Source: a virus
Length of the DNA: 64,000 bases
Virus record (IMG/VR): IMGVR_UViG_3300048011_000285
Coordinates: 1-64,000 of that record
Reading direction: 5' to 3' (one strand)
Both the position numbers and the translations under genes were made by a program. The stretch's first letter is position 1, and every line of letters begins with the position of its first letter. Below the pieces are notes generated by a model. It did no database searches and was not told the DNA's origin. It saw only the letters and a list, made by a program, of their open reading frames with translations. Positions 27,501 through 48,403 of this stretch are shown one piece after another.

Positions 27501-27526
27501 ATTGGACGGCTACTTAGTCGTCCAAT
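27501..27526 (-). terminator. hairpin terminator between convergent genes
   Basis: ATTGGACG/CGTCCAAT, an 8-bp stem extended by two weaker pairs around a 6-base loop, overlaps the stop of the minus-strand radical SAM gene. On the minus strand it is followed by TCTATTTTA. It can serve both convergent transcripts but has no long T run on the plus side. Confidence 0.6.
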
Positions 27527-28730
27527 ATTCTTCCCACTCTGGGAAGTAATCAAATACACGCTTTCCAAAGATTTCATCTAATCTATCAGTGTATCTACAA
27601 AAATTATCCCATTCATCTTGATTTCGTTCTTTCGCAGATAGCATCGCTACTGTGAAATCTCCTACCTCATGAGCTGCATGTAGTTCATCATCTGGTAGTG
27701 TTGCTACAAAATCATTCCATTCTTGCAAATATCTGTCTTTTAATTCTTGTGGTAAGTTAATTGGGTTTAACATATCAGGTCGTAATACTTCACACATACT
27801 GTATTTGTTAGGGGTCGAGAACGTCTTGAAGTCATTGTATATTTCAATTAAACGTGCGCTTTGCATATTAGATACTGTAATTACAGGGTTAATAGATGCT
27901 TGCGGTAGTCCTTCTTTAAGAGATAGAATGTTCTTAATAACTCTATCCCAATCACCGCCTTCTCTAAAGTAATTATAAAAAGATGCAGAACCATCGATAC
28001 TGAACTTTAGACTAATACTATTGTATGGTTTCAGAATATCAATAACATCATACCCTTTCCACTTGCCTGCAATAGAACCGTTACTAGTTGTAATAAGATT
28101 AATCTTATGTGCATGAGGTGCAAACTTAATTAAACATTCATAAAATTCACGTTGAAAGAAAGGTTCACCACCGGTGATTTCTAGTTCTAAGAATTCTCCA
28201 TCATCTAATTTTTCAATATATGGGATCATTGTATCTAAATCTAAGAACTGTGCATAACTCGTATCATGCTCTAAATGATTTATATCAAATGTTTTTAAAT
28301 CAGGATTATTACGTACAGTCTTTGTCCACAATGTACTGTATTCTGCACTACAATGTCTACATGCATAATTGCATACATTACTAAATCTAAACTCTACACG
28401 ATGTAGCTTGTTCATCTTACCAGTAACTGAATCAACATTATCTATATACCAAGTATCTGGTTTATCGCTTAACTTAATACGATTACGATAACTAGTCGCG
28501 CCTTTGTCCTCCATGTGCTTACAGTCATTGCATTGTGGTAATGGCCACTCACCATTACGCAACATTAATCGTTGTCTGTTAAGTTCTGGATCATTCATTA
28601 CATCTTCAAACGTTTTATGTTTCTCATACGTGCCTTCAACAGCACGATAGCACATGTCAGTTCTGTTATGTTTAAAATTTAACCCTGCCATACCCATATG
28701 ACATGACAATGGTTCTTTTTTCTGCGACAT
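27510..28730 (-). CDS. radical SAM protein, 406 aa
   Basis: The radical SAM core has C120-x3-C124-x2-C127 in RFSNVCNYACRHCSAEYST, with ITGGEPFF as the SAM motif. The N-terminal 75 residues hold extra cysteines (LSCHMG, DMCYRAV, QCNDC) in positions like those of the twitch-type enzymes at 29519 and 46982. A SPASM cysteine set is not obvious at the C-terminus. A late octamer lies at 28759-28766 on the same strand, and GAGGTG precedes the ATG. It stands alone on this strand between plus-strand genes. Substrate unknown. Confidence 0.88.
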   Translation of the reverse strand: MSQKKEPLSCHMGMAGLNFKHNRTDMCYRAVEGTYEKHKTFEDVMNDPELNRQRLMLRNGEWPLPQCNDCKHMEDKGATSYRNRIKLSDKPDTWYIDNVDSVTGKMNKLHRVEFRFSNVCNYACRHCSAEYSTLWTKTVRNNPDLKTFDINHLEHDTSYAQFLDLDTMIPYIEKLDDGEFLELEITGGEPFFQREFYECLIKFAPHAHKINLITTSNGSIAGKWKGYDVIDILKPYNSISLKFSIDGSASFYNYFREGGDWDRVIKNILSLKEGLPQASINPVITVSNMQSARLIEIYNDFKTFSTPNKYSMCEVLRPDMLNPINLPQELKDRYLQEWNDFVATLPDDELHAAHEVGDFTVAMLSAKERNQDEWDNFCRYTDRLDEIFGKRVFDYFPEWEEYWTTK

Positions 28731-29518: not shown

Positions 29519-30781
29519 ATGACTGATAGAGGAACTAAATGTAAATACTTCTGGAACCACGTTGCACTGTTCAACGGGAAAACTGCTACCCCATGTTGTA
29601 GATATGACAGTAGTACTAAGAATGGCAAGACCCCCACTGTTGACATGAAAAAGCCATTTACTACGTTTACAGAATCTATACATTCACAAGAATGGGAAAC
29701 TCTACGTGACAATGCTGAAAAGGGAATAAAAGAACCGGGGTGTTGGAAATGTTATGCAGATGAAGAAAAAGGAAACGATTCTTTACGTCTGGTAGCAAAC
29801 AGAATGTGGGAAGATGAACCTGTTGAACCGAAACTTCGGTATCTTGAAATAAATCTAGGAAATTTCTGCAATCTAGCATGTAACATTTGTTGTTCTGATA
29901 ACAGTAATCTTTGGTATAAAGATGATAAAGAACTGAGTAAAACACCAGAATATCGTAGAGGAACATACCAACCAGACCACGAAAAAGGCATCAGTCTAAA
30001 TTATGATGATTATAAGAATGTAAAACTAATTAAGTTTGTTGGCGGTGAACCGATGATTCATCCAAAGTTTATAACATTATTAGACTTCTTAATCGAAAAT
30101 GAATTACATAACACAATAGAGATACAAGTATTCACTAACGCAAGTTGGATGCCAAAAGAAAAAGTAATCTCACGTTTGAAAAAGTTCGCAGTCTCAACTA
30201 TCAGTTTAAGTGTAGATGGTATAGGACAGGTAAACGACTACTCTCGTTGGCCTAGTAAATGGACAGTTGTTCATGAATCAGTAAAAGAGTGGATCAAAAC
30301 ATCACACGAAAATGATAACTTCTTTGTAAGATGGGAGCCTACTATATCCATTTACAACTCTAATCATATCCCTGCAATGGTATGTTGGTGGATAGAAACC
30401 ACTATGTCAGTTACCGGGCTTCCAATGGAAGATGCGCTATACGATCCTCAATCGGACGATATTAATATTATCTTCAATAATGTACTTTGGCCATTGTACA
30501 TGAAGCCCAACTTATTGCCTACTAGTGACCGGGAATGTGAAAGAATTGATAACGCTATGTCTAAGATATACAATCGCCATATAGATGTTTCAAGAGACTT
30601 TTCTAAACTTATGTTACGCAAGCTAGAGCAGAGATTAGAACAAGCAAAAAGGTTTATTTCACCTGATACGGATAAAGAAAGTCTAGATACATTCCTCAAG
30701 TTCACAAATGATTTGGATAAATTGAGAAATAATAACTTTGCTGAACAACTTCCCATGTTATTTTCTGCATTAAAAACTTGA
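29519..30781 (+). CDS. twitch-type radical SAM protein, 420 aa
   Basis: The core motif C117-x3-C121-x2-C124 lies in NLGNFCNLACNICCSDNS, with FVGGEPMI as the SAM motif. The N-terminus has C8 in KCKYFWNHVALF and a CC pair at 26-27, then C75 and C78 (GCWKC). This is the same order as FC..PW ... CC ... C..C in the genes at 46982, 52639 and 56321, which I read as an N-terminal twitch domain for a second iron-sulphur cluster. The ATG has no Shine-Dalgarno and coincides with the expected transcript start, so it is probably leaderless. Substrate unknown. Confidence 0.88.
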   Translation: MTDRGTKCKYFWNHVALFNGKTATPCCRYDSSTKNGKTPTVDMKKPFTTFTESIHSQEWETLRDNAEKGIKEPGCWKCYADEEKGNDSLRLVANRMWEDEPVEPKLRYLEINLGNFCNLACNICCSDNSNLWYKDDKELSKTPEYRRGTYQPDHEKGISLNYDDYKNVKLIKFVGGEPMIHPKFITLLDFLIENELHNTIEIQVFTNASWMPKEKVISRLKKFAVSTISLSVDGIGQVNDYSRWPSKWTVVHESVKEWIKTSHENDNFFVRWEPTISIYNSNHIPAMVCWWIETTMSVTGLPMEDALYDPQSDDINIIFNNVLWPLYMKPNLLPTSDRECERIDNAMSKIYNRHIDVSRDFSKLMLRKLEQRLEQAKRFISPDTDKESLDTFLKFTNDLDKLRNNNFAEQLPMLFSALKT

Positions 30782-30977: not shown

Positions 30978-31005
30978 TTGACAAATACACAAACCATGCT
31001 ATATT
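30978..31005 (+). promoter_or_regulatory. sigma70-type promoter, repeated cassette copy 2
   Basis: TTGACA (30978-30983), 16 bases, TATATT (31000-31005), then AATTAAGTAATCAA as in copies 1 and 3. Drives the gene at 31036. Confidence 0.75.
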
Positions 31006-31035
31006 AATTAAGTAATCAACAAAAGAGAGAATCAC

Positions 31036-31224
31036 ATGTTTGACAATTTTTACAACGATATGATCAACTTCACTAATGAAAATGAAAACAAGAACCCAGA
31101 CGGATCTGTTAACTGGAACTTTGTTGATGCTGATATGTTTGAGAAATATCAAGTCATTCTAGATGGTGAAACATACTCTGAATACTTTAACAAAGCCGCT
31201 GATATTGTCGAAAGTGCTGTTTAA
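31036..31224 (+). CDS. small acidic protein, 62 aa
   Basis: ATG at 31036 behind AGAGAG and the GAATCAC leader shared with other small genes. The product is acidic, with GSVNWNFVDADMFEKYQ, a motif I recall from short unnamed proteins in T4-like cyanophages. It has its own promoter at 30978 and is followed directly by another. No function assigned. Confidence 0.65.
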   Translation: MFDNFYNDMINFTNENENKNPDGSVNWNFVDADMFEKYQVILDGETYSEYFNKAADIVESAV

Positions 31225-31228
31225 AAAC

Positions 31229-31257
31229 TTGACAAATCTCGCGAATCACGCTATAGT
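31229..31257 (+). promoter_or_regulatory. sigma70-type promoter, repeated cassette copy 3
   Basis: TTGACA (31229-31234), 17 bases, TATAGT (31252-31257), then AATTAAGTAATCAA. Drives the MoxR-like ATPase gene. Confidence 0.8.
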
Positions 31258-31286
31258 AATTAAGTAATCAAACAAAGGAATACAAT

Positions 31287-32417
31287 ATGTCTGCAAAAGT
31301 TTCAACACACGATATGGATGTTCGTCTAGTTCGCCCGAGTGATATTCGAACAGAAATTAACTACGCTATGAATCGTAAGCGTCCGGTCTTCATCTGGGGT
31401 CCCCCCGGTATCGGTAAATCTGAGATTGTTGATTCAATCACACAAGAGCGTTCAGGTTACATGATTGACATGCGGCTTGCTCTTATGGAACCCACTGACT
31501 TGCGTGGTATCCCAGTACCGAATATGAATACAGGCTTGATGGAATGGCTTCCGCCTGCTGACTTGCCTACTCAAGAACTTGCTGATCAATTCGAATGTGT
31601 TGTACTATTTCTTGATGAAATGAATCAAGCACCACAGTCTGTACAAGCTGCTGCGTATCAGCTAATTCTTAATCGTCGGTTGGGTAACTACAAACTTCCT
31701 GATAATGTTCTAATCGTTGCCGCAGGCAATCGTGAAAGTGATCGTGGCGTTGCGTATCGTATGCCCAGTCCGCTTGCTAATCGTTTCGTTCACCTTGAAA
31801 TGACAACTGACTTTGAAGATTGGCAGACTTGGGCTTTGCAAAACAATATAGATGCTGAGGTTGTGGGCTACGTTACTGCAAACAAAATGGATCTAATGAA
31901 CTTTGATCCTCGCACTGCATCACGTGCTTTTGCTACTCCTCGTTCATGGACGTTTGTGTCACAAATGCTTCCGATGGAAGGTGAGCAAATCTCAGATAGT
32001 CGCTTGCACGATTTGATTGCAGGTACTGTTGGTGATGGTATCGCTACTAAATTCATGGCGCACCGTGCAATCTCAGGCAAACTTCCTAATCCAACAGATA
32101 TCTTGAATGGCACTGTTAAAACATTGGGTAAAGAAGGTAGTGAAATCTCTGCGATGTTCTCACTGACTGCTTCACTTTGCTACGAACTGCGTGACTTTGT
32201 TGATCGTAATGGCAAGGACAAAATGGACGAGTTGTACAAAATGGCTGACAACTTCTTCCGTTTCATGATGGATAACTTCGAAACAGAAATGACCGTACTT
32301 GGTGGTCGTACCGCACTGAAAGTTTACAAACTCCCACTTGAGCCGCGTAAAGTTCCTTGCATCGAGGAGTTCTTTAAGAAGTATGGTAAACTAATTATCG
32401 AGGCACATAACGCTTAA
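31287..32417 (+). CDS. MoxR-family AAA+ ATPase
   Basis: Walker A is GPPGIGKSEIVDSI (about 38-51), Walker B is VVLFLDEMNQAP (about 108-119), the sensor region is VLIVAAGNRESD, and LANRFVHLEM carries the arginine finger. MoxR ATPases act as chaperones together with VWA-domain partners, often to assemble or insert cofactors into complexes. A VWA/metallopeptidase gene lies at 39868, separated by the metabolic cluster. GTTCATCC-like operon partners are not adjacent. RBS AAAGGAA. Good length for the family (376 residues). Confidence 0.9.
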   Translation: MSAKVSTHDMDVRLVRPSDIRTEINYAMNRKRPVFIWGPPGIGKSEIVDSITQERSGYMIDMRLALMEPTDLRGIPVPNMNTGLMEWLPPADLPTQELADQFECVVLFLDEMNQAPQSVQAAAYQLILNRRLGNYKLPDNVLIVAAGNRESDRGVAYRMPSPLANRFVHLEMTTDFEDWQTWALQNNIDAEVVGYVTANKMDLMNFDPRTASRAFATPRSWTFVSQMLPMEGEQISDSRLHDLIAGTVGDGIATKFMAHRAISGKLPNPTDILNGTVKTLGKEGSEISAMFSLTASLCYELRDFVDRNGKDKMDELYKMADNFFRFMMDNFETEMTVLGGRTALKVYKLPLEPRKVPCIEEFFKKYGKLIIEAHNA

Positions 32418-32432
32418 TTGCAGACTAAGCGT
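32408..32432 (+). repeat. 8-bp inverted repeat at the MoxR gene end
   Basis: AACGCTTA (32408-32415) and TAAGCGTT (32425-32432) pair around a 9-base loop, overlapping the last codons of the MoxR gene. It is followed by a second hairpin at 32441. Together they form a double-hairpin end. Confidence 0.6.
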
Positions 32433-32440
32433 TAGTACTG

Positions 32441-32471
32441 GAGGGAGGAGTATTGACTTCTCCCTCTTTTT
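32441..32471 (+). terminator. intrinsic terminator containing the next promoter's -35
   Basis: GAGGGAG and CTCCCTC form a 7-bp stem, followed by a run of T. The loop contains TTGACT (32453-32458), the -35 of the promoter for the adenylate-forming enzyme gene. Terminator and promoter thus share the same bases. Confidence 0.7.
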
Positions 32472-32481
32472 ATAGTATAAT
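32453..32481 (+). promoter_or_regulatory. sigma70-type promoter giving a leaderless mRNA
   Basis: TTGACT (32453-32458), a 17-base spacer, TATAAT (32476-32481). Expected start is about 32488-32489, at the ATG of the first gene of the metabolic cluster. Confidence 0.75.
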
Positions 32482-32488
32482 AAGAATA

Positions 32489-33856
32489 ATGATATATCAA
32501 ACATTTAAACAAACTGCAAAAAGATTTCCAAATAAGGATGCACTTATTTGCGGTGACAAAACATACACATATTCAGAACTAGCGACTAGTGTTGATAACT
32601 TGATTGCTGTACTTAGTACGGCATTTATGCCAAATGAGCGTGTACTATTTGCGAGTGAACGTTGGCATAACTATGTGAGAATGGTATTAGCATGTGATGC
32701 TTTAGGTGTCACATTTATGCCAACGTACTATGATTTACCCAAAGCAGTTATCGATGATATATCAAAAGCAAGCAAGCCGGACCATATCATTCTAAATGAA
32801 AATGATGCTATTAATCTTAAACCGCATAATAAGGGATTAGTTTGCGTTAAGGGAAAAGAATACGTTTACACTGTTCTATTCACTAGCGGTACTACAGGAG
32901 CGCCTAAGGCTGTCGCACATAGTAACAAGGCGTGTTATGATGCTTGTATTCAAAACATTGACATATTCAACATGAGTACAGACGATGTTATTTTAGCTCA
33001 ACTCCCGCCGCCGACAGTAGCAGGATTATATCTATTCCCACTACCAGCACTTATGGTAGGTGCTACAGTTGTCATGGAAGCATTTAATCCGAGGCGCTTC
33101 GCAGAAATAAATCTAACATATAAACCAACTGTTGGTATTATTGTTCCTGCTATGATTGTTGCTATGAATAGAGTGCGTAGTTGGCATGAACTTGATATGT
33201 CACATTGGCGTGAACTAAGTGTCGGTAGTACAATTATCCCAGAAGAAATGTTAAACATGTTATTTGACAAGGGTGTTCCAGTCATACGTGATTTATACGG
33301 ATGCACTGAAACTCATGTACCTCCGTTTACATATCTAATCGAACCAGATACTCAACACAAGCTACAATTAGAGTGTACTCCAAACTATCAATACAAACTT
33401 GATAGATACGGAGTTATGTGGATCAAAGGATCTCCCGTAATGATGTATTATCTTAATGATGATGCAAAGTTTGACGAGAATGGATATTGGTGCACCGGTG
33501 ATGTATTTGAACGCAGATACAATAAACTATTCTATAAATCACGGCAGAAAGATTTGATTAAAGTGAATAGTTATAATGTATCTCCAGTATCAATTGAAAA
33601 TGCAATCATGGTATTCCCAGATATAGAGGAAGTATGTGTGACGTTTCGAAGCAGGGAAATGTTGGGAGAAGTTGAGATCGTAGCATTGGTAAAGGTAGAA
33701 AAAGAGATAAATATAAGTGAACTACAATTATCTATCAAAGATAAATTATTCCCTTATGAAATCCCCAAAGAAATAATCATTGTTGATGAACCACTGACCA
33801 GGAATCAAATGGGGAAAATTCAACGGGAAGCTAACAGAGAGAAATTTGTAACATGA
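32489..33856 (+). CDS. acyl/aryl-AMP ligase (ANL superfamily)
   Basis: ATG 32489 is chosen over the TTG at 32453, which is part of the promoter. The 455-residue protein has the full set of adenylate-forming motifs: VLFTSGTTGAPKAVAHSNKA (P-loop), DLYGCTETHVPP, YWCTGDVFE, KSRQKDLIKVNSYNVSP (hinge), and TRNQMGKIQR with the catalytic lysine. It activates a carboxylic acid as acyl-AMP and then loads CoA or a carrier protein. It is shorter than acyl-CoA synthetases of about 550. It is the first gene of the cluster that contains a ketosynthase and a desaturase, so a fatty or aryl acid substrate is likely. It overlaps the halogenase by 4 bases. Confidence 0.9.
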   Translation: MIYQTFKQTAKRFPNKDALICGDKTYTYSELATSVDNLIAVLSTAFMPNERVLFASERWHNYVRMVLACDALGVTFMPTYYDLPKAVIDDISKASKPDHIILNENDAINLKPHNKGLVCVKGKEYVYTVLFTSGTTGAPKAVAHSNKACYDACIQNIDIFNMSTDDVILAQLPPPTVAGLYLFPLPALMVGATVVMEAFNPRRFAEINLTYKPTVGIIVPAMIVAMNRVRSWHELDMSHWRELSVGSTIIPEEMLNMLFDKGVPVIRDLYGCTETHVPPFTYLIEPDTQHKLQLECTPNYQYKLDRYGVMWIKGSPVMMYYLNDDAKFDENGYWCTGDVFERRYNKLFYKSRQKDLIKVNSYNVSPVSIENAIMVFPDIEEVCVTFRSREMLGEVEIVALVKVEKEINISELQLSIKDKLFPYEIPKEIIIVDEPLTRNQMGKIQREANREKFVT

Positions 33857-35550
33857 AATCACAGGTAAAAAAGATTATTATTTTAGGTGGTGGAGCCGCC
33901 GGATGGTTTACTGCTGGTTATCTCAAAACAAAAAATCCTGAAATTGATATTACCCTTATTGAGAGCAAGAAGATCGGTATCATTGGAGTTGGAGAATCTA
34001 CAATCCCACAGTTAGGTGATTTCTTTGCAGAAATGGGTATCGAAGAACGTGATTGGATGTCCAGTACAAATTCACTATATAAACTAGGTAATAAATTTGT
34101 TGGCTGGAACATTGAAGGTAAACGTCACCACGTATCAAATCATTGGTGGTGTTCTAAGTTTGATGAACAGTACTTTACATTTTCTTTTGCTATGCCAGAG
34201 AACCAACTAACACGTTCATATTATCATCAAATCAAAACAGACGATTACTTCAACAATTCTAAAGGCGATCCGGGAGTAGATGATAAATGGAATGACTATT
34301 GGTTACACCTTGAACGTCAAGGTCGTAGAAACTGGTGGGAAATGTCAGAGGATATGTGCGAACAAACCTTCCTGATGGACCACAATAAAGCGCCATTTGA
34401 TATGGATGACAATCAACTAGTAGGTGATTGGCAAGCAAAGACATATCACGTAGATGCAGAACGGTTTCCAGAAGTAGTACGTGATAGAGTTGCAATACCA
34501 AAAGGTGTTAAACACATTTGGGGGCATGTTGCTGATATTGTAAAATCAGAAGATGGATACATTGAAAAACTTGTACTAGAAGATGGCTCAGAGCATGAAG
34601 CGGACTTGTTCTGCGATGCTACAGGCTTTAACCGTATCCTGACAGGTACAATGGACAACGGTTGGCACGACTACGAGCATATCTTTACACGTGATGCTAT
34701 CGTGGCGCCAGTTAAGTATAAAGACGTTAAAACAGAAATGCGTCCGTATACACAGTCGTATGCACAAGATGAAGGGTGGAATTTCATCATCACTCTATAC
34801 AATCGTATGGGGTCAGGTTATATTTTTGATCGTACAGAAATTTCACCAGAAGACGCTATGGTGAAGTTTAAAAAGTATTGGGAAGGGCACGAGTTTATCA
34901 AAGAGCCACGACACATTTCTTGGGAGTCCGGTCGTATGGAAACTCCTTGGAATAAGAACGTTGTTGGTATCGGTATGGCAGGAGCGTTTGTTGAGCCAAT
35001 GGAAGCCAACTCATTATACGTAGCACAGGCATGTATTCAGTTAACTAACCGTATTATCAATCGTGCGAAAGAAGAAAATGCTATTATTACACCATCACAA
35101 ATTCACGCATATAACAAAAATATGAGTAAACTAGAAGACGGTATTGCTGACTTTGTTGCGTATCACTTTACACTGTCCGACCGAGAAGATACACCGTTCT
35201 GGCGTAAACAAAAACAATATGGTATTAACCATAATCACAAAGAAGCGTGTTGGGAACATTACCGTCGTCCTGTGAACTATGTAGGTAACGGCGTATACCC
35301 AGACTTTATGTGGGCCATGCTTGCTGTGTATATGAACAAGTTTGATGATAGCGTAAAACTAAACACCATCAAACCTGAACTAGTAGAAAAAGCAAATATG
35401 ACTTGGGACTTCATTCATAAGTCAAGTAAAGAGAATGGTCGTTACGCACCACACGCATATGATTGGCATCGTAAATTTTTATTCGACGGCAAATCACACG
35501 AAAAAGTATTGGAGGAAGCACTTGCTAAAATATCTAGAAACATTGTTTGA
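33853..35550 (+). CDS. flavin-dependent tryptophan-halogenase-family protein
   Basis: A 565-residue protein. GGGAAGWFTAGYL near residue 11 is the FAD-binding GxGxxG site; GVGESTIPQLGDFF and LYKLGNKFVGW (with the expected active-site lysine) are family hallmarks; FCDATGFNR and GIGMAGAFVEPMEANSLY complete the fold. The usual WxWxIP motif reads WNFIIT here (GWNFIITLYNRMGSGYIFD). The family oxidises halide with FADH2 and O2 to halogenate an aromatic. A marine cyanophage homologue (VirX1) has been described as an iodinase. A flavin reductase is not visible nearby. It is coupled to the ligase by ATGA. Confidence 0.9.
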   Translation: MKSQVKKIIILGGGAAGWFTAGYLKTKNPEIDITLIESKKIGIIGVGESTIPQLGDFFAEMGIEERDWMSSTNSLYKLGNKFVGWNIEGKRHHVSNHWWCSKFDEQYFTFSFAMPENQLTRSYYHQIKTDDYFNNSKGDPGVDDKWNDYWLHLERQGRRNWWEMSEDMCEQTFLMDHNKAPFDMDDNQLVGDWQAKTYHVDAERFPEVVRDRVAIPKGVKHIWGHVADIVKSEDGYIEKLVLEDGSEHEADLFCDATGFNRILTGTMDNGWHDYEHIFTRDAIVAPVKYKDVKTEMRPYTQSYAQDEGWNFIITLYNRMGSGYIFDRTEISPEDAMVKFKKYWEGHEFIKEPRHISWESGRMETPWNKNVVGIGMAGAFVEPMEANSLYVAQACIQLTNRIINRAKEENAIITPSQIHAYNKNMSKLEDGIADFVAYHFTLSDREDTPFWRKQKQYGINHNHKEACWEHYRRPVNYVGNGVYPDFMWAMLAVYMNKFDDSVKLNTIKPELVEKANMTWDFIHKSSKENGRYAPHAYDWHRKFLFDGKSHEKVLEEALAKISRNIV

Positions 35551-35572
35551 TAAAATATCATACGAGAGAAGA

Positions 35573-36322
35573 ATGCATATTCAGTGGTCGTTTAATGCTA
35601 TTGTAACTGCAATTGCGGTCCCATACTGTATATATACAGAACAATATGCTATTCTGGGATGGGGATTTTTGTGGGCATATCTAGTAATGTGTATCGGTGC
35701 AAATGCAGGATTCCATAGATGGGCATCGCATCATAGCTGGAAACCAAGTGAACCAATTAAATGGGTTATGATGACAATGTTTATGTTTGGATCTCCGGGA
35801 TCCCCACTAGTGACTGTTTTATTCCACAGATATCATCATAAACATAGTGACCATGAAGACGATCCGCATTCACCACATGTAATTGGTTGGTTTAGAGGTG
35901 CTACAGGTCGCTTCCAAAAGTCAGGCGGATATCTATCTTCTGGCAGAGATATGTTTAAAGAGCCAAGTGTAGTATTCTATCACAGACACTACTGGAAGTT
36001 CCAAGCCGTTATATATCTGTCTGCATTATTAATTGGTGGTCCTCTATTTTTTGCAATCTTTATCTGTTTCAGTGGTTTCTACAATGCAACTATTGCAGGA
36101 CATATTTTAGATGGGGTTCTATCGCATTATAAGTGGTTAGGTTATCGTTGGTTTGAAACTAAAGATCAGTCGAATAATAATCCTATCTTTGCGTGGTTGA
36201 GCGGTGGTGAAGCATGGCACAATAATCATCATGCAAGGCCCGGTAGATGGTACTTTGGACATAAGTGGTGGGAATTTGATCCTGCTGGTTTTCTAATCTG
36301 GGCGGTGTTAAAACGTATTTAA
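35573..36322 (+). CDS. fatty-acid desaturase (delta-9 acyl type)
   Basis: The start ATG 35573 is supported by GAGAGAAG just upstream and by avoiding a 116-base overlap with the halogenase gene. The 249-residue membrane protein has the three histidine boxes of the stearoyl-CoA desaturase family: HRWASHHSW, HRYHHKHSD and HNNHHARPG, with hydrophobic segments between (about 10-50 and 145-180). It would insert a double bond into an acyl chain using a diiron centre and electrons from ferredoxin or cytochrome b5. Shorter than host enzymes (about 300) but with every metal ligand intact. It abuts the next gene (stop 36322, start 36323). Confidence 0.93.
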   Translation: MHIQWSFNAIVTAIAVPYCIYTEQYAILGWGFLWAYLVMCIGANAGFHRWASHHSWKPSEPIKWVMMTMFMFGSPGSPLVTVLFHRYHHKHSDHEDDPHSPHVIGWFRGATGRFQKSGGYLSSGRDMFKEPSVVFYHRHYWKFQAVIYLSALLIGGPLFFAIFICFSGFYNATIAGHILDGVLSHYKWLGYRWFETKDQSNNNPIFAWLSGGEAWHNNHHARPGRWYFGHKWWEFDPAGFLIWAVLKRI

Positions 36323-36922
36323 ATGTTACTTAAAAATTTTACAGGTGCAGACAAAATAGAGTTTTCTTTACATCAAGTAGATGAAAGCAATATAGTAGAA
36401 TTCAAAGAATTCCTCGTTAAATGTGGCGAAGACGGCGGTCCTAATAATTCATCATTAAAAGCTATTAAGTTTTGTAAATGGGGATCAGAGGAAGCGTGGT
36501 GGTTCGTAAAACATAAAGATACTATTGTATCTATGTGCGGTGCGCATTATCTTCCTCATATATCTCCAAAATGCTATATGATAGCGTATCGTGTATATAC
36601 TCTTAAAGCATGGAGAGACACCGCATCATCTACTAAAGACCATAAAATGCTTAATGAATTTCATCACGGTGCAGTACAACCGTTTGCAGTAGAATGGTGT
36701 TTATCACGTGGTGCCGACACAATTGTTACTACGGTGAATACTGAGAAGAACCTAGAACAAGATCCCAACGGATTAGATTACAAGTTTTCCAGAGTAGCAA
36801 GAATCGTATTTCCACGTGGAGGGAAATATACATTGCTACATAAAGACTTTCTGTTATATAACAAATATCAGGATGTATGGAAGCTGAACTACAAAGACTT
36901 TAGAACAATGGAACCCCTATGA
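36323..36922 (+). CDS. GNAT-like acyltransferase candidate, 199 aa
   Basis: The layout EEAWWFVKHKDTIVSMCGAH, then YMIAYRVYTLKAWR, then FAVEWCLSRGADTIVTTVN resembles the beta-hairpin and central strands of N-acetyl/acyltransferases, ending with a strand like KDFLLYNKY. The acetyl-CoA pyrophosphate loop is not clearly conserved. In the cluster it directly follows the desaturase and overlaps the ketosynthase by 4 bases. It may transfer the acyl product to an amine, but the family assignment is tentative. Confidence 0.5.
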   Translation: MLLKNFTGADKIEFSLHQVDESNIVEFKEFLVKCGEDGGPNNSSLKAIKFCKWGSEEAWWFVKHKDTIVSMCGAHYLPHISPKCYMIAYRVYTLKAWRDTASSTKDHKMLNEFHHGAVQPFAVEWCLSRGADTIVTTVNTEKNLEQDPNGLDYKFSRVARIVFPRGGKYTLLHKDFLLYNKYQDVWKLNYKDFRTMEPL

Positions 36923-38070
36923 CTGTTTATATTGAAAACATATCCGCTTTTACACCGTTTGGCAATTTAGAACAAACCTGGAAATCTATTATCAATAATA
37001 AAATTGCGTATGGTCCTATAACTAAATTCGATCCAAATGCAAGTCGTTATACTAGAAGTAAAGTTGCAGGAGAGTTTCACTTCAATGCAGAAGAATATCC
37101 GATTATAACAGAAGCAGAACGTGATAGACTACCAGAGCATATGCAGTGGGCATTAGCATTATCAAGTGACTTGATTGGCGATAGAGAGCTACCAAGTGAA
37201 AGAACAAGTGTTATTGTATCTCCGGGATTTTCCATGTACTTAGAAAGTCTAAGGGCAAACAGAGAAAATACAGACAATAGCTATACATTCTGTCCTAACA
37301 TGATTGCACACAATATCAATATCAAATATGGGTACACAGGACCTAGTACAATGACCATGAGTGCATGTAGTACAGGCATATACAGTATTATTCTAGGGTG
37401 TATGCTTATTGAAACAGGACAAGCAGATTATGTTATTGCTGGGTCAGTTGACCAATGTATCAGCGAAGATGCATTTAAACAGATGGGCAAATTACGTGCA
37501 TTATCTACGAAGTATAATAGTAATCCCACTGTAGCAAGTAGACCTTGGGATAAAAAACGTGATGGTCTAGTTCTGAGTGAAGGCGGGGCGCTATTTTTGT
37601 TAACTAAAGAAAAAACAGAAAACACACTATGTGAAATAGAAAAGTATGTAATGACAAACGATGCGTATCAAGTTGTTGCGCCGCATCCTGAGGGTAAACA
37701 TATTGAAAGATGTATGTCACAATGCATCGACAGTAAGCCAGATTTAATTAATGCACACGCAACATCCACACCTATGGGCGATGTTGTAGAGTTAGATGCA
37801 ATTAATAGATTAGGTATGAAAGATGTCTACATAACTGCAAATAAATCACAACTTGGACATATGATGGGCGCTGCTGGTGCAGTAGAGACAGCAATAAGTG
37901 CCATGAGTTTAGTTAATAACACTATAACACCATCACTAAATATTGATATACTAGAAGATAGATATAAACCAAAGTATGTGACTACTGCAACAAAACATGG
38001 CATAAATTCTGTTCTATGTAATAGCTTTGGATTTGGTGGCACTAATGCAAGTATACTATTAACAAAATGA
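36919..38070 (+). CDS. beta-ketoacyl synthase (KAS II/FabF-like)
   Basis: A 383-residue thiolase-fold condensing enzyme with the Cys-His-His triad intact: MSACSTGIYSI holds the nucleophile, NAHATSTPMGDVVE and NKSQLGHMMGAAGAVE the two histidines, and NSFGFGGTNASILL ends the protein. It would condense an acyl thioester with malonyl-ACP. No acyl carrier protein is visible in the cluster, so the phage would rely on host ACP. It overlaps its neighbours by 4 bases on each side, showing strict co-translation with the other cluster genes. Confidence 0.93.
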   Translation: MTVYIENISAFTPFGNLEQTWKSIINNKIAYGPITKFDPNASRYTRSKVAGEFHFNAEEYPIITEAERDRLPEHMQWALALSSDLIGDRELPSERTSVIVSPGFSMYLESLRANRENTDNSYTFCPNMIAHNINIKYGYTGPSTMTMSACSTGIYSIILGCMLIETGQADYVIAGSVDQCISEDAFKQMGKLRALSTKYNSNPTVASRPWDKKRDGLVLSEGGALFLLTKEKTENTLCEIEKYVMTNDAYQVVAPHPEGKHIERCMSQCIDSKPDLINAHATSTPMGDVVELDAINRLGMKDVYITANKSQLGHMMGAAGAVETAISAMSLVNNTITPSLNIDILEDRYKPKYVTTATKHGINSVLCNSFGFGGTNASILLTK

Positions 38071-38465
38071 CATTTCAAGATTTATTTAAAAACAACCCTA
38101 ACATATGGATGCCAATAGCAGACATGTTAGACAATGTTTTAACATCAGGGATAAACGATAGATTTACACGCGCTGAACGTGAATACATGTTTGCACACTT
38201 TTCAAAAGAAAATAGTTGCGACTTTTGCTATGAACATCATATAGATTTCGCATATGATTTAGGTTATAACAATAGTATTACAGTCAAAGACTTGATGGAC
38301 GAAGACGCATTAGAAAATATATTTTGGATCAAAAATATTGCACTGTTAGTCAATACTGCGATAAAAGAGTATGATATAAAACAAATTAATTCAGAAAATA
38401 AAAAACTGAAGAATACAACTATAAAAGAATACGGTTATAACTATAAAAAGAATATACGGAGTTAA
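38067..38465 (+). CDS. AhpD/carboxymuconolactone-decarboxylase-like protein
   Basis: The stretch FTRAEREYMFAHFSKENSCDFC followed by YEHH matches the AhpD-like core, in which a CxxC pair and a nearby His form a redox or proton-transfer site (C at about 51 and 54). The protein is helical throughout, 132 residues, with a Lys/Asn-rich tail. AhpD-type proteins reduce peroxides or act as decarboxylases. In this cluster it might handle peroxide or hypohalite by-products. Overlaps the ketosynthase by 4 bases. Confidence 0.6.
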   Translation: MTFQDLFKNNPNIWMPIADMLDNVLTSGINDRFTRAEREYMFAHFSKENSCDFCYEHHIDFAYDLGYNNSITVKDLMDEDALENIFWIKNIALLVNTAIKEYDIKQINSENKKLKNTTIKEYGYNYKKNIRS

Positions 38466-38467
38466 AA

Positions 38468-39193
38468 ATGAAAAACATAGGCATCGATAACTTAAATGAA
38501 GTTATAGAAAATCTAATTTATTTACCTCTCAATATCAGTAATCCACCTGAAGGATGCATTGACGGGATAGAAGAAATAACAGATGACATGATGAAGTGGG
38601 ACGAATTCAGATCCTGTAACCTTATCCCCCTTGCTATCGACTACAGAGAAAAAGATGTCATTGAATGGGTGCCAAAATTTATTGATAAATTTCCAAAACT
38701 AAAGACTTGGCTAGAACAAGAAGTTTTTACTAAGGTAGGTTTTGGTAGAACACTGATAATCGTTACAGACCCAGATGAAACAAATGCTCCCCATATAGAT
38801 GCGGCGCGGGATACATTCGTAGATATATTAAATCATAAACTGCGATATGTATTACAAGGAAACGTAAGTGACTTAGTTTTCATTTCTAAGGATAATACGA
38901 CTGTTATCCCAGAAATCGACAAACCTTATATTATGAATGGTAAGTGGCCACATATGATGCACAATACATACGATAAAAGAAAATACACATTAGCTATTGG
39001 TGCACCTTGGGAGCCAAGCATTGACGATGAACAATATAGAAACCTAATAACAGATGCTTATAGTAAATTTAATAAAAATTATATTGGGTCAACTGGCATT
39101 GAGCTACCAGAAAACTGGAAGGAAATGTTTGAGGACTATGATAAAAATAAATCAAACCATGTCGATGCCAAAGATTTTATTGAAAAAACTTGA
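38468..39193 (+). CDS. 2-oxoglutarate/Fe(II) oxygenase-like protein, 241 aa
   Basis: It shows a double-stranded beta-helix pattern: TLIIVTDPDETNAPHIDAARD supplies the HxD pair, LRYVLQGN and LVFISKDN the core strands, and WPHMMHNTYDKRKYTLAIG the distal His and basic residue. This resembles aspartyl/prolyl-hydroxylase-like phage oxygenases. The C-terminal NWKEMFEDYDK recurs in the 43-residue ORF at 39687, and the two share a 20-base identical DNA stretch. It is the last gene of the metabolic cluster and its end contains the next promoter. Confidence 0.55.
   Translation: MKNIGIDNLNEVIENLIYLPLNISNPPEGCIDGIEEITDDMMKWDEFRSCNLIPLAIDYREKDVIEWVPKFIDKFPKLKTWLEQEVFTKVGFGRTLIIVTDPDETNAPHIDAARDTFVDILNHKLRYVLQGNVSDLVFISKDNTTVIPEIDKPYIMNGKWPHMMHNTYDKRKYTLAIGAPWEPSIDDEQYRNLITDAYSKFNKNYIGSTGIELPENWKEMFEDYDKNKSNHVDAKDFIEKT
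39122..39141 (+). repeat. 20-bp direct repeat, copy 1
   Basis: An exact 20-base match to 39723-39742, within longer similarity that starts at AACTGG and is followed in both places by a TTGACA promoter. It encodes EMFEDY in both copies. Confidence 0.85.
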
Positions 39194-39217
39194 CAAAATC
39201 TATAACTATGCTATACT
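39190..39217 (+). promoter_or_regulatory. sigma70-type promoter with palindromic -10
   Basis: TTGACA (39190-39195), 16 bases, TATACT (39212-39217). The -10 is embedded in the perfect 14-base palindrome CTATACTAGTATAG (39211-39224), a likely operator. Confidence 0.75.
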
Positions 39218-39249
39218 AGTATAGTAGTTGGAAATAAAGGACGAATCAT

Positions 39250-39690
39250 ATGGAAAATGAAGAACTAGATGAATTAATAAAAACTTATATTTACGAAAGT
39301 CCGGACAAAGAAGTTTCAACATCTGATAGTTGGGTAGATACATCTGATTATCATATTGACACAGTAGATAATACAATAGATTTATCTGGTATTCTGACAA
39401 GTAGTAATACCGGTACTATTACCGGTAATAGTACCGGTACTATTACCCTTAATTCAAACCATATTACAGCAGATACATTTGAAGATTTTAATGATATAAG
39501 TTTAGACGTTAATGGCAAAACACGAAAAATTTCAGAGTTGTTTACTATTGTAGATGCAATTGAGAAACGTCTTGGTGTCTTACAGCCAGATCCGAAACTA
39601 TTAGAAAAATACGAAGTACTTCAAGGATTGTATGAACAATACAAAGCGGCAGAAGCAATGCTATATGAAGATGATACAGAAGAAGAATGA
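39250..39690 (+). CDS. phage protein of unknown function, 146 aa, containing a DNA palindrome
   Basis: An acidic protein. The first half is Ser/Thr/Asp-rich with a repeat-like GTITGNSTGTITLNS, the second half is helical (VDAIEKRLGVLQPDPKLLEK), and it ends in DDTEEE. The helical half recalls short unnamed proteins of T4-like cyanophages. The repeat-like stretch is encoded by a perfect 32-base palindrome at 39408-39439. The leader GAATCATATG is shared with the gene at 39868. Not an acyl carrier protein: no phosphopantetheine-site DSL motif is present. Confidence 0.6.
   Translation: MENEELDELIKTYIYESPDKEVSTSDSWVDTSDYHIDTVDNTIDLSGILTSSNTGTITGNSTGTITLNSNHITADTFEDFNDISLDVNGKTRKISELFTIVDAIEKRLGVLQPDPKLLEKYEVLQGLYEQYKAAEAMLYEDDTEEE
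39408..39439 (+). repeat. perfect 32-bp palindrome
   Basis: The two 16-base halves, the left being TACCGGTACTATTACC, are exact reverse complements centred at 39423/39424. It lies inside the coding sequence of the 146-residue protein and could extrude as a cruciform or bind a dimeric protein. Confidence 0.9.
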
Positions 39691-39818
39691 TACCTGAATT
39701 CGAAATAGTTGATAACTGGGACGAAATGTTTGAGGACTATGAAAAGGTAATACATACAGCTATATCTGATTATTGGAAAAAGATGCTCCAAAAGAGTTTT
39801 AAACACTTGACAAACTGA
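39687..39818 (+). CDS. small protein, 43 aa
   Basis: The start overlaps the previous stop (ATGA), so it is coupled. The product contains DNWDEMFEDYEK, nearly the same as NWKEMFEDYDK at the end of the 2OG-oxygenase-like protein at 38468. The match extends to DNA and to the promoter that follows, so one is probably a duplicated copy of the other's 3' end. The rest (IHTAISDYWKKMLQKSFK) is helical. Function unknown. Confidence 0.5.
   Translation: MIPEFEIVDNWDEMFEDYEKVIHTAISDYWKKMLQKSFKHLTN
39723..39742 (+). repeat. 20-bp direct repeat, copy 2
   Basis: Exact copy of 39122-39141, 601 bases away, in the 43-residue ORF and followed 64 bases later by another TTGACA promoter. Confidence 0.85.
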
Positions 39819-39835
39819 AACGCAGATGCTATATT
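39807..39835 (+). promoter_or_regulatory. sigma70-type promoter
   Basis: TTGACA (39807-39812), 17 bases, TATATT (39830-39835). Drives the VWA/metallopeptidase gene at 39868. Confidence 0.8.
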
Positions 39836-39867
39836 ATTAGAGTAAGTTAGACAAAAAGGCGAATCAT

Positions 39868-41205
39868 ATGCAAATCGAACCTAAGAAAATTGTAACAGAA
39901 GACGATTTTAACTCTGTGCTAGATGATCTACTCAAAGAAAATGGTATCGAGGTTGATGAAAATTCAGAAGAGCCTGTAGTATTCGAATACACTGATCAAG
40001 AAGTTAAAGAAATGATTGTATCAGGTCGTGTTCGCATGTTGATTAAGCATCCGTTTTTCGGTACTCTCGCTACACGACTGAAACTAGTCGAAGCTGAGTG
40101 GTGTCCTACTGCCGCAGTTGATGGTAAACACTTCTATTATAACTGTGATTTCTTTCGCACACTAACTAGTGAAGAAATTGACTTTGTTGTAGGCCATGAA
40201 GTATTTCATTGTGTATATGAACACTGTGGTGAAAATGGTCGTCTGATGGATTATAAAGATGAAAATCGTGATCCTAAGCTATGGAATATTGCTGCTGATT
40301 ATAAAGTTAATCAAGGTTGTGTAGAAGCTAAAATCGGTACAATGCCTAAGATGGCATTGTTTGATCGTAAGTATTACAAATCATACACTGAAGAGATTTA
40401 TGCTGATCTATTTCAACAGAAAAAAGATGGGAAAGACTTTAGCGGCACTGAAACGCTTGATGAACATATGTTCGGAGATGGTGAAGGTTCTGATAAAGAC
40501 GGCAAGAATGATCCTACTGGTCGTAAAGCACCTATCAAAATTTCTAAGGAAGAAGCAAAAGCTATCAAGGATCAGATGAAACAAGCTGTTCTGCAAGCTG
40601 CACAATCATCGGGTGCAGGCAATCTGCCGGGTGATATCAAACGTATCATCAAAGATATGACAGAACCAAAGATGGATTGGCGTGAGCATTTGAACCTAGC
40701 AGTTCAATCATCACTCAAATCTGACTTCACATGGATGCGCCAATCTCGCAAGTCACGTTCACTTGGTATCTATCTACCGGGGACTGACAACGACTATCAA
40801 GTTGACGCTGCGATTGGTATTGATGTTTCGGGCTCTATCTCACACGATATGATACGTGATTTTATGGGAGAAATCTCAGGCATCATGGATCAGTTTCAAG
40901 ATTTTCGTTTGCGTGTATGGACTTTCGATACTCAAGTGTATACAGAATCATACAAAGAATTCACCCCTATGAATGCTGATGAAATCAAAGATTATGAAAT
41001 CATTGGTTGTGGCGGCACTGATTTTGAATGTAACTACAACTTCATGGAAGAAAACGATATTGTTCCTGACAAATTCATTATGTTTACAGATGGTTATCCG
41101 TTTGGTTCATGGGGCAATGAAGCATACTGTGATTCACTATTCGTAATTCATGGATCAAATCATATCATCCCACCGTTCGGTGACCATACATACTACTCTA
41201 ACTAA
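39868..41205 (+). CDS. VWA-domain protein with metallopeptidase-like domain (DUF2201 type)
   Basis: The N-terminal domain has VVGHEVFHCVYEHCGENG, an HExxH zinc-peptidase-like helix with an extra His (about 112-120). The C-terminal VWA domain starts DAAIGIDVSGSISHDMIRDF with the MIDAS motif DxSxS and has IGCGGTDFE and MFTDGYPFG. This two-part layout is the predicted metallopeptidase/VWA family often paired with MoxR ATPases. The MoxR gene at 31287 is its likely partner. The target complex is unknown. Leader GGCGAATCAT before the ATG, promoter at 39807. Confidence 0.85.
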   Translation: MQIEPKKIVTEDDFNSVLDDLLKENGIEVDENSEEPVVFEYTDQEVKEMIVSGRVRMLIKHPFFGTLATRLKLVEAEWCPTAAVDGKHFYYNCDFFRTLTSEEIDFVVGHEVFHCVYEHCGENGRLMDYKDENRDPKLWNIAADYKVNQGCVEAKIGTMPKMALFDRKYYKSYTEEIYADLFQQKKDGKDFSGTETLDEHMFGDGEGSDKDGKNDPTGRKAPIKISKEEAKAIKDQMKQAVLQAAQSSGAGNLPGDIKRIIKDMTEPKMDWREHLNLAVQSSLKSDFTWMRQSRKSRSLGIYLPGTDNDYQVDAAIGIDVSGSISHDMIRDFMGEISGIMDQFQDFRLRVWTFDTQVYTESYKEFTPMNADEIKDYEIIGCGGTDFECNYNFMEENDIVPDKFIMFTDGYPFGSWGNEAYCDSLFVIHGSNHIIPPFGDHTYYSN

Positions 41206-46981: not shown

Positions 46982-48403
46982 TTATTTATATTTTTTCATT
47001 GCGTTATATAGTTCTGGTAGTTGACGTTCCATATTCTCATCACGTATATCATCTAGTTTGCCATTGTAATCCCAGAACTTCTTATTGTTCTCTTCAGTAA
47101 ACCAATCTTCTCCGTACATAAAGTTAATGTTAGTATCAAGTAGTTGATCCATTTTTTGATTTGCCCATTCAACATTTGCAGGTTTAACAAATCCAATTGC
47201 CATTGGATTCTTCTTAGCTAAACTATGAAAGTCAATCGTATGTACAATATTATTTTTAAAATCTGTTCTAAATTCTTCCCAACTATCTCTTACTTGGTCT
47301 TTCACTTCTTTGGGTAAAAAACGTGTACTTAGTTCAAAAGGCCTATGAATTGGGTGTATGTTTACGAATGGTTTTGGATTGTTTTTCATCATTGGAGAAA
47401 TGATTGCAAAATCTTGTTCAATTTTCCATTTAAGAAAATCAGGAACATGAAATGCATTCAATGAACCGATTGTAAAAGCAATCCATGCTCTAAAGTTTAA
47501 TGTTTCTGTACCGACTTCATCTAACTTTTTTAAATTCTTTTCAATCAACTTTGACTTTAGTGGATTGCGTACATACTCTAGTGTGTCACCGATGCCATCC
47601 ATTGAAATACCGAACTGCACTTCTTTGAAGTTTTTCCATAGTTCTAACGCACGTGGTTGAATGTTTGTAAGATTAGTGTTATACTCTAATGTCATGTTCT
47701 TCGCATGACCTGTTTCTAAACAATAATTTAAGAACTCGTAATGTTTTTCAATGATAAGTGGCTCGCCGCCTACTAAGTATACATGTTGCATACCCGACAC
47801 GTTTTCTTTTAAGTTTTCCCAAAAGTGGTCGTCCATTACCCAATCATAATCAGGTGCTGTAAACTTACCCTTTTTGTTTTTAACCATTTCGACTATGCCA
47901 TGAGTGTCTTTAAATTTATTTGTATTCCACATCTTAACATAGTCATCGTACCAAGCACTAGAGTCCATTGGAGAACACATACGACATTTTAAATTACAGA
48001 AGTTACCCAAACGAATATCATAATACGTTTGTTTGATATGTTCTAAATCAATCGTTCCATCTTCCGATGTGTGCTTTACAGCATCTTCCCAAGTAATGTG
48101 TTTAGCAAAACGTTCACCGTCGTTGATACGTCTAGATTTCATACCTGCTTTTTCTTCACGTATACAACGTACACATTCAGGATGCCATTCTCCATCTAAC
48201 ATAGTCTTGCGAATTTCTTTAGCAAGAGGAGAGTTAATAGCATCAGTGATATTGTCACGATGCAAGTTATAATTCTTACCGTCTTCCTTCTTATATATTC
48301 CTCGTGTTGGTCCCTGATTAGCATGACAACAAACTCTCAAGTCACCGTTTGCACGTGTTGAAATATTAATCCAAGGGAGAATACAAAATGTCTTACTTTC
48401 CAT
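46982..48403 (-). CDS. N-terminal-twitch radical SAM protein, 473 aa
   Basis: The N-terminus reads FCILPWINISTRANGDLRVC (C7, C25-C26) with C77-x2-C80 behind it, the N-terminal twitch layout. The core is C136-x3-C140-x2-C143 in RLGNFCNLKCRMCSPMDSSA, with LVGGEPLI. The family (named by NCBI as twitch domain-containing radical SAM protein) is known mostly from marine microbes and phages and has no assigned reaction as far as I know. It is closely similar to the enzyme at 52639, including PDFLKWKIEQ-like segments. It overlaps its upstream neighbour by 11 bases. Confidence 0.9.
   Translation of the reverse strand: MESKTFCILPWINISTRANGDLRVCCHANQGPTRGIYKKEDGKNYNLHRDNITDAINSPLAKEIRKTMLDGEWHPECVRCIREEKAGMKSRRINDGERFAKHITWEDAVKHTSEDGTIDLEHIKQTYYDIRLGNFCNLKCRMCSPMDSSAWYDDYVKMWNTNKFKDTHGIVEMVKNKKGKFTAPDYDWVMDDHFWENLKENVSGMQHVYLVGGEPLIIEKHYEFLNYCLETGHAKNMTLEYNTNLTNIQPRALELWKNFKEVQFGISMDGIGDTLEYVRNPLKSKLIEKNLKKLDEVGTETLNFRAWIAFTIGSLNAFHVPDFLKWKIEQDFAIISPMMKNNPKPFVNIHPIHRPFELSTRFLPKEVKDQVRDSWEEFRTDFKNNIVHTIDFHSLAKKNPMAIGFVKPANVEWANQKMDQLLDTNINFMYGEDWFTEENNKKFWDYNGKLDDIRDENMERQLPELYNAMKKYK
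46983..46990 (-). promoter_or_regulatory. T4-type late promoter octamer (minus strand)
   Basis: A perfect TATAAATA, overlapping the end of the radical SAM gene above and 26 bases ahead of the next start at 46956. It gives late expression to 45781 and 44729 independently of the rest of the operon. Confidence 0.7.

What the first reader, a model, noticed from the sequence alone, without database searches (positions are those of the whole stretch)
32489..39193. Phage-encoded biosynthetic cluster: AMP ligase, halogenase, desaturase, ketosynthase, AhpD-like, 2OG-oxygenase-like
Seven genes in a tight run, mostly with 4-base overlaps or no gap, contain an acyl/aryl activating enzyme, a flavin halogenase-family protein, a three-histidine-box desaturase and a beta-ketoacyl synthase with an intact Cys-His-His triad. 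The combination looks like a small natural-product or lipid-modifying pathway. No carrier protein or thioesterase is present, so host ACP or CoA would be used. Single members of these families are known in marine phages; the combined cluster is what is striking.
Basis: partly seen in the sequence, partly recalled or inferred. Interest (0 to 1): 0.92.

Follow-up and report, generated by a model that had tools for sequence, protein, structure and literature searches.

The report
Phage operon for acyl-chain tailoring
Some large marine phages carry a ready-made block of genes that looks able to activate, lengthen, desaturate and modify a fatty-acid-like molecule during infection; the block comes and goes as a whole, but its product is unknown.

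Summary
Seven genes at 32489-39193 form one tight run between two phage genes (AAA ATPase, VWA). Confirmed: an AMP-forming ligase, a flavin-halogenase-family protein, an acyl-CoA-desaturase-like protein and a FabF-like ketosynthase with intact catalytic residues; the unnamed fourth gene is modelled as a GNAT acyltransferase. The AhpD and 2OG labels stay unproven. Relatives answer the refutation test: of 39 IMG/VR contigs with both flanking genes, 25 carry the whole ligase-halogenase-GNAT-ketosynthase core, 12 none of it, 2 a shortened ligase (one with GNAT); 14, 8 and 2 of 24 clusters. Core genes are under purifying selection and a conserved promoter precedes the ligase. In 8 records no flavin reductase matched and no ketoreductase passed the cut-off. 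The halogenase keeps the catalytic Lys and Glu but none of 30 copies has the FxxPxxSxG motif of active halogenases, so halogenation is unproven. Best reading: one phage pathway for a modified, perhaps N-acylated, acyl metabolite. My searches found no paper describing this set.

The parts
32440..32481 (+). terminator-like hairpin (32440-32467) that holds the -35 (TTGACT 32453-32458); -10 TATAAT at 32476-32481, 7 bases before the ligase ATG
   Evidence: four >=11/12 sites on the + strand in 31000-40000 against a mean of 0.35 in 200 dinucleotide shuffles; a >=9/12 site in the 60 bases before the ligase start in 13 of 15 relatives, and by eye also in the other two, L149 and L012
32489..33856 (+). 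LIG: AMP-forming acyl/aryl ligase (ANL family), 455 aa
   Evidence: PF00501 5.9e-41, PF13193 7.2e-07; P-loop, TGD and C-terminal Lys regions aligned in A12
33853..35550 (+). HAL: flavin-dependent halogenase-family protein, 565 aa
   Evidence: PF04820 6.5e-90; PDB halogenases by profile, PrnA 7.8e-68; K77 and E384 invariant in an 11-row alignment with other phage halogenases
35543..36322 (+). DES: membrane acyl-CoA desaturase-like protein (start TTG 35543 or ATG 35573)
   Evidence: PF00487 5.5e-10; profile of six desaturases matches acyl-CoA desaturase 4zyo 2.7e-26; His boxes HRWASHH, HRYHHKH, HNNHH
36323..36922 (+). G4: GNAT-fold acyltransferase, 199 aa
   Evidence: AlphaFold pLDDT 91.3; Foldseek 250 PDB chains E<=0.001, the 50 listed are by title acetyl- or acyltransferases of the GNAT kind; best VIA Z 11.2, an acetyltransferase
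36919..38070 (+). KAS: FabF-like beta-ketoacyl synthase, 383 aa, Cys-His-His-Lys intact
   Evidence: PF00109/PF02801; alignment A11
38067..38465 (+). AhpD-like CxxC protein, 132 aa (accessory, not in the core)
   Evidence: TIGR04030 19 bits against cut-off 233
38468..39193 (+). OG: 241 aa, HxD...H...R pattern by eye, identity unproven (accessory)
31287..32417 (+). left flank: phage AAA (MoxR-like) ATPase, phrog_1297
   Evidence: next to VWA in most cassette-free relatives
39868..41205 (+). right flank: VWA-type protein (name by eye)
   Evidence: partner flank

Best explanation
One operon, with its own promoter-like site, that builds and modifies an acyl metabolite during infection. Inferred steps: LIG activates a carboxylic acid as acyl-AMP and passes it to CoA or to the phage's or host's acyl carrier protein; DES (one or two copies, missing in some relatives) adds a double bond; KAS adds two carbons from malonyl-ACP and leaves a beta-keto group; HAL acts on the activated carbon or on an aromatic starter; G4 moves the acyl group to an amine. 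Shown here: the gene set, its conservation as a block, intact catalytic residues of LIG and KAS, the predicted GNAT fold of G4, and carrier proteins in the same phages. Inferred: the order of steps, the substrate, the N-acylated product, and whether HAL halogenates.
For: All-or-none presence: 25 of 39 full, 12 none, 2 partial; 14, 8 and 2 of 24 clusters. The backbone tree needs 3 changes of the whole block, at least 2 forced by well-supported branches (the 2 partial rows not counted). In L019 the flanking AAA is 99% identical to the window's, but LIG is 93%, HAL 79%, G4 46% and KAS 67% identical and a diverged DES (33%) stands after KAS: parts replaced by diverged homologues, set kept. dN/dS 0.057-0.124 for LIG, HAL, DES, G4 and KAS in the pairs compared. 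Conserved promoter-like site before LIG, none of >=11/12 on the + strand inside the cassette. PF00550 carrier in 9 of 10 cassette-bearing and 0 of 10 cassette-free records (Fisher 1.2e-4). No short-chain dehydrogenase over cut-off in 8 records, one weak match below it, in keeping with a retained beta-keto group.
Against: No product, substrate or expression data. The carrier gene is about 28 kb from the cassette, lies in two different gene contexts and need not serve it; the Fisher value is not corrected for kinship, I chose the records, some are near-copies of each other, and records may be fragments. FDHs mostly act on electron-rich aromatics, which a plain acyl chain lacks (recalled). HAL misses FxxPxxSxG in 30 of 30 copies and WxWxIP. 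G4 shows no clearly conserved Q/RxxGxG/A motif (motif recalled), so the acyl donor is unsure. In L041/L167 a shortened ligase, a G4-like protein and a divergent HAL stand together on a contig that ends there, so a set without KAS may exist.
Confidence: 0.6

Rival explanations
1. Membrane-lipid remodelling: the operon changes the host's fatty acids or phospholipids (chain length by KAS, unsaturation by DES, acyl recycling by LIG), and no separate small molecule is made.
For: The DES profile matches acyl-CoA desaturases; cyanophage lipid desaturases are described (Roitman 2018, seen only as a reference inside PMC11480375). An ocean-wide AMG survey lists fatty acid biosynthesis among pathways with most steps virus-encoded, summed over communities (PMC11360552, passages).
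Against: 5 of 14 full clusters have no DES, while HAL and KAS come together in each of the 25 closed contigs that has either; HAL and a GNAT have no obvious part in phospholipid remodelling (inference).
Confidence: 0.15
2. Aromatic starter pathway: LIG activates an aryl acid, HAL halogenates its ring, KAS extends it and G4 makes an amide.
For: Flavin halogenases act on aromatics, VirX1 among them (PMC8407142 passages). LIG scores about as well against 4-coumarate and feruloyl-CoA ligases as against FadD13.
Against: A desaturase is part of 9 of 14 full clusters, which fits a fatty chain; I did not search for other aromatic-pathway genes.
Confidence: 0.15
3. HAL is not a halogenase but a flavin monooxygenase of the same family, so the product is oxidised, not halogenated (compatible with the best explanation).
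For: FxxPxxSxG reads FVEPMEANS in the window; in 30 of 30 HAL copies over 500 aa the S is A or G and the G is S, I, V or A, and WxWxIP has F at the second W. No flavin reductase PF01613 in 8 records.
Against: The catalytic Lys and Glu positions are invariant. HTVC008M's annotated halogenase has a similar FTEPLEATS. WxWxIP is absent in some FDHs (PMC8407142). Flavin reductases are commonly supplied by the host (recalled).
Confidence: 0.35
4. Unrelated auxiliary genes collected in a variable slot between AAA and VWA; no joint pathway.
For: The slot takes other genes too: aminotransferase class IV and a 227-229 aa ligase in L038/L153-type contigs, X273, X332 and others. HAL-family genes occur in many cyanophages (72 records with a match), and no gene annotated as ligase, KS or desaturase stands beside them in the three I opened.
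Against: All or none of the core in 37 of 39 contigs, near-constant order, overlapping junctions, in-place replacement.
Confidence: 0.1

Closest known systems
VirX1, flavin halogenase of cyanophage Syn10 (PDB 6QGM), and other cyanophage/pelagiphage PrnA-like genes
   Same: PF04820 family; four phage relatives aligned are 26-30% identical, catalytic Lys and Glu conserved
   Different: In the three annotated neighbourhoods I opened (Syn10, HTVC008M, S-B64) no neighbour is annotated as ligase, ketosynthase or desaturase, though several are hypothetical. The Syn10 gene that I take for VirX1 by length (530 aa; annotated hypothetical) has FIEPLESTG, the cassette FVEPMEANS
Cyanophage lipid desaturases (Roitman 2018; not read, seen as a reference in PMC11480375)
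   Same: phage-encoded desaturase
   Different: here part of a KS/ligase/GNAT/halogenase-family block; DES has no match in the phages collection at E 1e-5
Phage-encoded biosynthetic gene clusters (pBGCs; Dragos 2021, known only through the passage in PMC10452541)
   Same: a phage carrying a multi-gene pathway for a small molecule
   Different: described there as rare and mostly in temperate phages of commensal or pathogenic hosts; this one is in phages whose DNA polymerase is nearest to those of jumbo phages
Acyl carrier proteins in marine phages (two co-isolated cyanophages with ACP and ACP synthase, PMC3037559 passage)
   Same: phage ACP; the one here has the DSL motif
   Different: here its distribution follows a KS-ligase cassette in the records tested
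FeeM N-acyl amino acid synthase (PDB 2g0b)
   Same: GNAT fold; rank 45 of the Foldseek list for G4, TM 0.51
   Different: many other GNATs score as well or better; no specific kinship shown

Membership tests
Flavin-dependent halogenase (active) | PF04820 match with GxGxxG-type flavin motif | tested here: met
   6.5e-90; GGGAAGW; the family model also rings in 5 of 14 control genomes
Flavin-dependent halogenase (active) | active-site Lys (PrnA K79) and Glu (E346) | tested here: met
   K77 and E384 invariant in the 11-row alignment; PrnA numbering recalled
Flavin-dependent halogenase (active) | FxxPxxSxG motif (or G replaced by a charged residue) | tested here: not met
   0 of 30 HAL copies; definition from PMC8407142. 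So not filed as an active halogenase
Flavin-dependent halogenase (active) | WxWxIP motif | tested here: not met
   WNFIIT in the window; also absent in some FDHs
Flavin-dependent halogenase (active) | halogenating activity | not testable with these tools
   needs an assay
Beta-ketoacyl-ACP synthase | Cys-His-His triad and Lys | tested here: met
   C150, H280, H314, K309; 26 of 26 full-length copies
Beta-ketoacyl-ACP synthase | fabF equivalog score (TIGR03150, 493.75 bits) | tested here: not met
ANL acyl/aryl ligase | AMP-binding and C-terminal domains over cut-off, P-loop, C-terminal Lys | tested here: met
ANL acyl/aryl ligase | substrate class | tested here: inconclusive
   PDB ranking mixes fatty-acyl, 4-coumarate, malonyl and succinylbenzoate ligases
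Acyl-CoA desaturase (SCD-like) | three His boxes and similarity to SCD | tested here: met
GNAT acyltransferase (G4) | GNAT fold | tested here: met
   predicted model
GNAT acyltransferase (G4) | Q/RxxGxG/A acetyl-CoA motif (recalled) | tested here: inconclusive
   no clearly conserved motif between strand 84-93 and helix 113-128, by eye
2OG-Fe(II) oxygenase (OG gene) | family match or double-stranded beta-helix fold | tested here: inconclusive
   no Pfam match, model failed
AhpD-like (AHPD gene) | family score | tested here: inconclusive
   19 of 233 bits; CxxC present
ACP-dependent biosynthetic pathway | carrier protein encoded | tested here: met
   PF00550 in the same record, outside the window; that it serves the cassette is not shown
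ACP-dependent biosynthetic pathway | thioesterase or offloading enzyme | not tested
   two ~335 aa paralogues beside the ACP have no Pfam match at E 0.01; not modelled

The most novel reading that the evidence does not exclude
Large marine phages carry a dedicated, carrier-protein-dependent pathway with its own promoter that makes a small molecule of their own: an unsaturated beta-keto acyl chain, halogenated or oxidised at the activated carbon and transferred to an amine, released or used as a signal, toxin or membrane agent during infection. It would be a ketosynthase-based metabolite pathway native to a phage lineage.
Probability: 0.3. Interest if true: 0.92.

Novelty: new variant of a known kind. 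Interest (0 to 1): 0.77.

Why it matters
Phage auxiliary genes are usually read as single enzymes that boost a host pathway. A conserved block with its own activating enzyme, condensing enzyme, tailoring enzymes and transferase, in phages that also encode carrier proteins, would mean that a phage lineage keeps a biosynthetic route of its own. It gives a defined gene set to express, and may give a setting for asking what phage halogenase-family proteins act on.

Tried and rejected
Relatives in phage isolates: HAL matches 72 records, all under 60% identity, 66 of them named Synechococcus, Prochlorococcus or Cyanophage. KAS matches 29 records and LIG 34; none is named as a marine phage, 23 of 29 and 24 of 34 bear no annotation, and I take them for bacterial DNA (inference). 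DES has no match. These searches may leave out the window's own or very near records.

Cellular source: a genome-contig scan with two short HAL motifs gave 111 pattern matches, none confirmed; it reaches only sequences sharing those motifs.

One search seemed to show KAS without the HATST motif and LIG without the P-loop; searches show HGTST and TSGTSG there, and LIG C-terminal GK motifs in L147, so the fault was in my patterns. Loss of the P-loop and the C-terminal domain is real in the shortened ligases (341-369 aa; L153, L155, L167, L173, L175, L176).

OG structure: model failed, no fold search made with it. OG dN/dS 0.96 rests on very few changes and is not used; HAL in the window/L018 pair also rests on few changes. 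The carrier scan of viral contigs confirmed one close relative only. Literature: searches listed no paper with this combination, by title and abstract start, with passages checked in PMC10452541, PMC8407142, PMC11480375, PMC8269204, PMC11360552 and PMC3037559; two papers were not held.
Full report
WHAT IS THERE. Seven frames on the + strand at 32489-39193 lie in a 71,112-base IMG/VR record of which the window is the first 64,000 bases. Family searches give an AMP-forming ligase (PF00501 5.9e-41), a halogenase-family protein (PF04820 6.5e-90), a desaturase (PF00487 5.5e-10), an unassigned 199-aa protein (G4), a ketosynthase (PF00109 1.9e-27, PF02801 1.5e-20), an AhpD-like protein (weak) and OG (no firm family). 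The left flank is a phage AAA ATPase (phrog_1297), the right flank a VWA-type protein (name by eye). The DNA polymerase at 10526-13324 (phrog_262) is nearest to jumbo phages such as Phosso and Atu_ph07 (49% and 45% identity). One cassette-bearing relative is a 342,607-base contig. The host is unknown.

G4. No Pfam family in the window copy; one homologue has a weak GNAT match of 0.0042. The AlphaFold model from 15 sequences has pLDDT 91.3. Foldseek finds 250 PDB chains at E<=0.001; the 50 listed are by title acetyl- or acyltransferases of the GNAT kind, and the best VIA Z is 11.2, rmsd 3.4 over 145 residues, to an acetyltransferase.

ACTIVE SITES. KAS keeps C150, H280, K309 and H314; 26 of 26 full-length copies in the AAA loci have the three motifs. 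LIG keeps the P-loop and C-terminal domain in the eight full cassettes aligned and, by motif, in the full-length copies of the AAA loci. DES keeps three His boxes, and the desaturase profile matches acyl-CoA desaturase 4zyo at 2.7e-26. HAL keeps K77 and E384, but FxxPxxSxG is met in 0 of 30 HAL copies and WxWxIP reads WNFIIT in the window. [quoted passage not shown] I therefore call HAL a family member, not a proven halogenase.

DO THE GENES BELONG TOGETHER? Scans with KAS, LIG, HAL and G4 found the same gene set in relatives. As a less biased test I searched with the flanking AAA gene (alignment A8, itself made from five cassette or short-ligase contigs): 308 relatives, of which the tool kept 80. 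Of these, 58 have AAA at 80% identity or more. I set aside 19 of the 58 whose fetched stretch shows no VWA gene downstream (most are cut by the contig end; L183, L184 and L188 have another gene there), leaving 39. Of 39: 25 full core LIG+HAL+G4+KAS (13 of them with a desaturase), 12 none of these genes (three of the 12 have one other gene in the slot), 1 short LIG+G4 with a second small ligase, 1 short LIG. Clustered at 97% AAA nucleotide identity: 24 clusters, 14 full, 8 none, 2 partial. Among the 19 set aside, L167 has a short LIG, a G4-like protein and a divergent HAL at the contig end, so its KAS state is unknown. The backbone tree requires 3 changes of state, at least 2 forced by well-supported branches. 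Orders in the 14 clusters: LIG-HAL-DES-G4-DES-KAS 5, LIG-HAL-G4-KAS 5, LIG-HAL-DES-G4-KAS 3, LIG-HAL-G4-KAS-DES 1. OG was seen in L133 and L134 only; AhpD also in L135.

SELECTION AND EXPRESSION. dN/dS is 0.057-0.124 for LIG, HAL, DES/DESb, G4 and KAS in three pairs of contigs and one extra LIG pair. A sigma-70-like site, TTGACT-17-TATAAT, starts inside a terminator-like hairpin just before LIG. Four sites of 11/12 or better occur on the + strand in 31000-40000 against a shuffle mean of 0.35 (maximum 3 in 200), and none lies inside the cassette. A site of at least 9/12 stands in the 60 bases before LIG in 13 of 15 relatives, three of them of the short-ligase kind; the other two, L149 and L012, show a TTGACT-17-TACAAT or -TATAAT string by eye, which my window had cut.

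CARRIER PROTEIN. PF00550 matches in 7 of 8 cassette records first tested; G006, a 71.8 kb record, has none. Of 12 more records, 2 match: G015 and G016. G015 has the halogenase. G016 has no PF04820 match because the contig begins inside KAS, and I count it as cassette-bearing. The other ten have no PF04820 match: six have AAA next to VWA, two have one 210-aa gene between, two (G012, G017) have another gene after AAA. Total: 9 of 10 with, 0 of 10 without (Fisher 1.2e-4). Limits: I chose the records, some look like near-copies (L144/L145 share a cluster; L184/L188 show the same map), records may be fragments, kinship is uncorrected, and the carriers lie in two contexts (beside a radical SAM gene, or beside Fe-S assembly-like genes). 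In the window's record the ACP frame is 67667-67903, between a radical SAM gene and two paralogues without family.

WHAT IS MISSING. In 8 records: no flavin reductase PF01613; no short-chain dehydrogenase over cut-off, one weaker match in G001. Both families may be supplied by the host.

HOW IT MAY WORK. Activation by LIG, unsaturation by DES, two-carbon extension by KAS, HAL acting on the enolisable carbon of the beta-keto product or on an aromatic starter, and transfer to an amine by G4. FDH action on activated beta-keto carbons has precedents (recalled, no call). Only the enzyme classes and their linkage are shown.

KNOWN OR NEW. Single parts are known in phages: halogenase-family genes, ACP, desaturases (reference). 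The review PMC10452541 counts a halogenase gene in 20 of 153 cyanophages and calls phage BGCs rare (passages). I found no paper with this set in the searches; subscription journals are mostly outside that library.

Noticed in passing
record coordinates 67667-67903 (beyond the window; L078:7668-7904): Acyl carrier protein between a radical SAM gene and two ~335 aa paralogues without family match; the paralogues look to me like alpha/beta hydrolases by motif only.
   Followed up: partly
window 32440-32481; also 31229, 39190, 39807: Strong promoter-like sites; the first starts inside a terminator-like hairpin and its -10 ends 7 bases before the start codon, so the transcript may be leaderless.
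   Followed up: partly
L153:11266-13777, L155, L038:9965-13357, L043: Sister phages keep a shortened ligase without P-loop and C-terminal domain (dN/dS 0.11 in L153/L155); in L153, L155 and L038 with a G4-like gene and a separate 227-229 aa ligase with intact P-loop: possibly a split or reused enzyme.
   Followed up: partly
L038:11835-12674: Aminotransferase class IV (PF01063 1.1e-31) in the same AAA-VWA slot.
   Followed up: no
window 27510-28730 (-), 29519-30781, 46982-48403 (-), 54233-55249 (-), 55249-56337 (-): Several radical SAM proteins; the first two pass the NF033640 twitch-domain cut-off; the last is below the Pfam cut-off.
   Followed up: no
window 63567-63998 (-), continuing to record 65099: NodU/Nol-like carbamoyltransferase (phrog_1601 9e-105) cut by the window end.
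   Followed up: no
L079:6210-8364 (record G001) and L295: A second kind of phage ACP gene next to IscA-like and J-domain-like Fe-S assembly genes (names by eye).
   Followed up: no
G001:C1:43884-44459, G002:C1:74325-74900, G004:C1:30047-30613: A second, small AMP-binding protein (235-239 aa frame) in three cassette-bearing records, far from the cassette.
   Followed up: no
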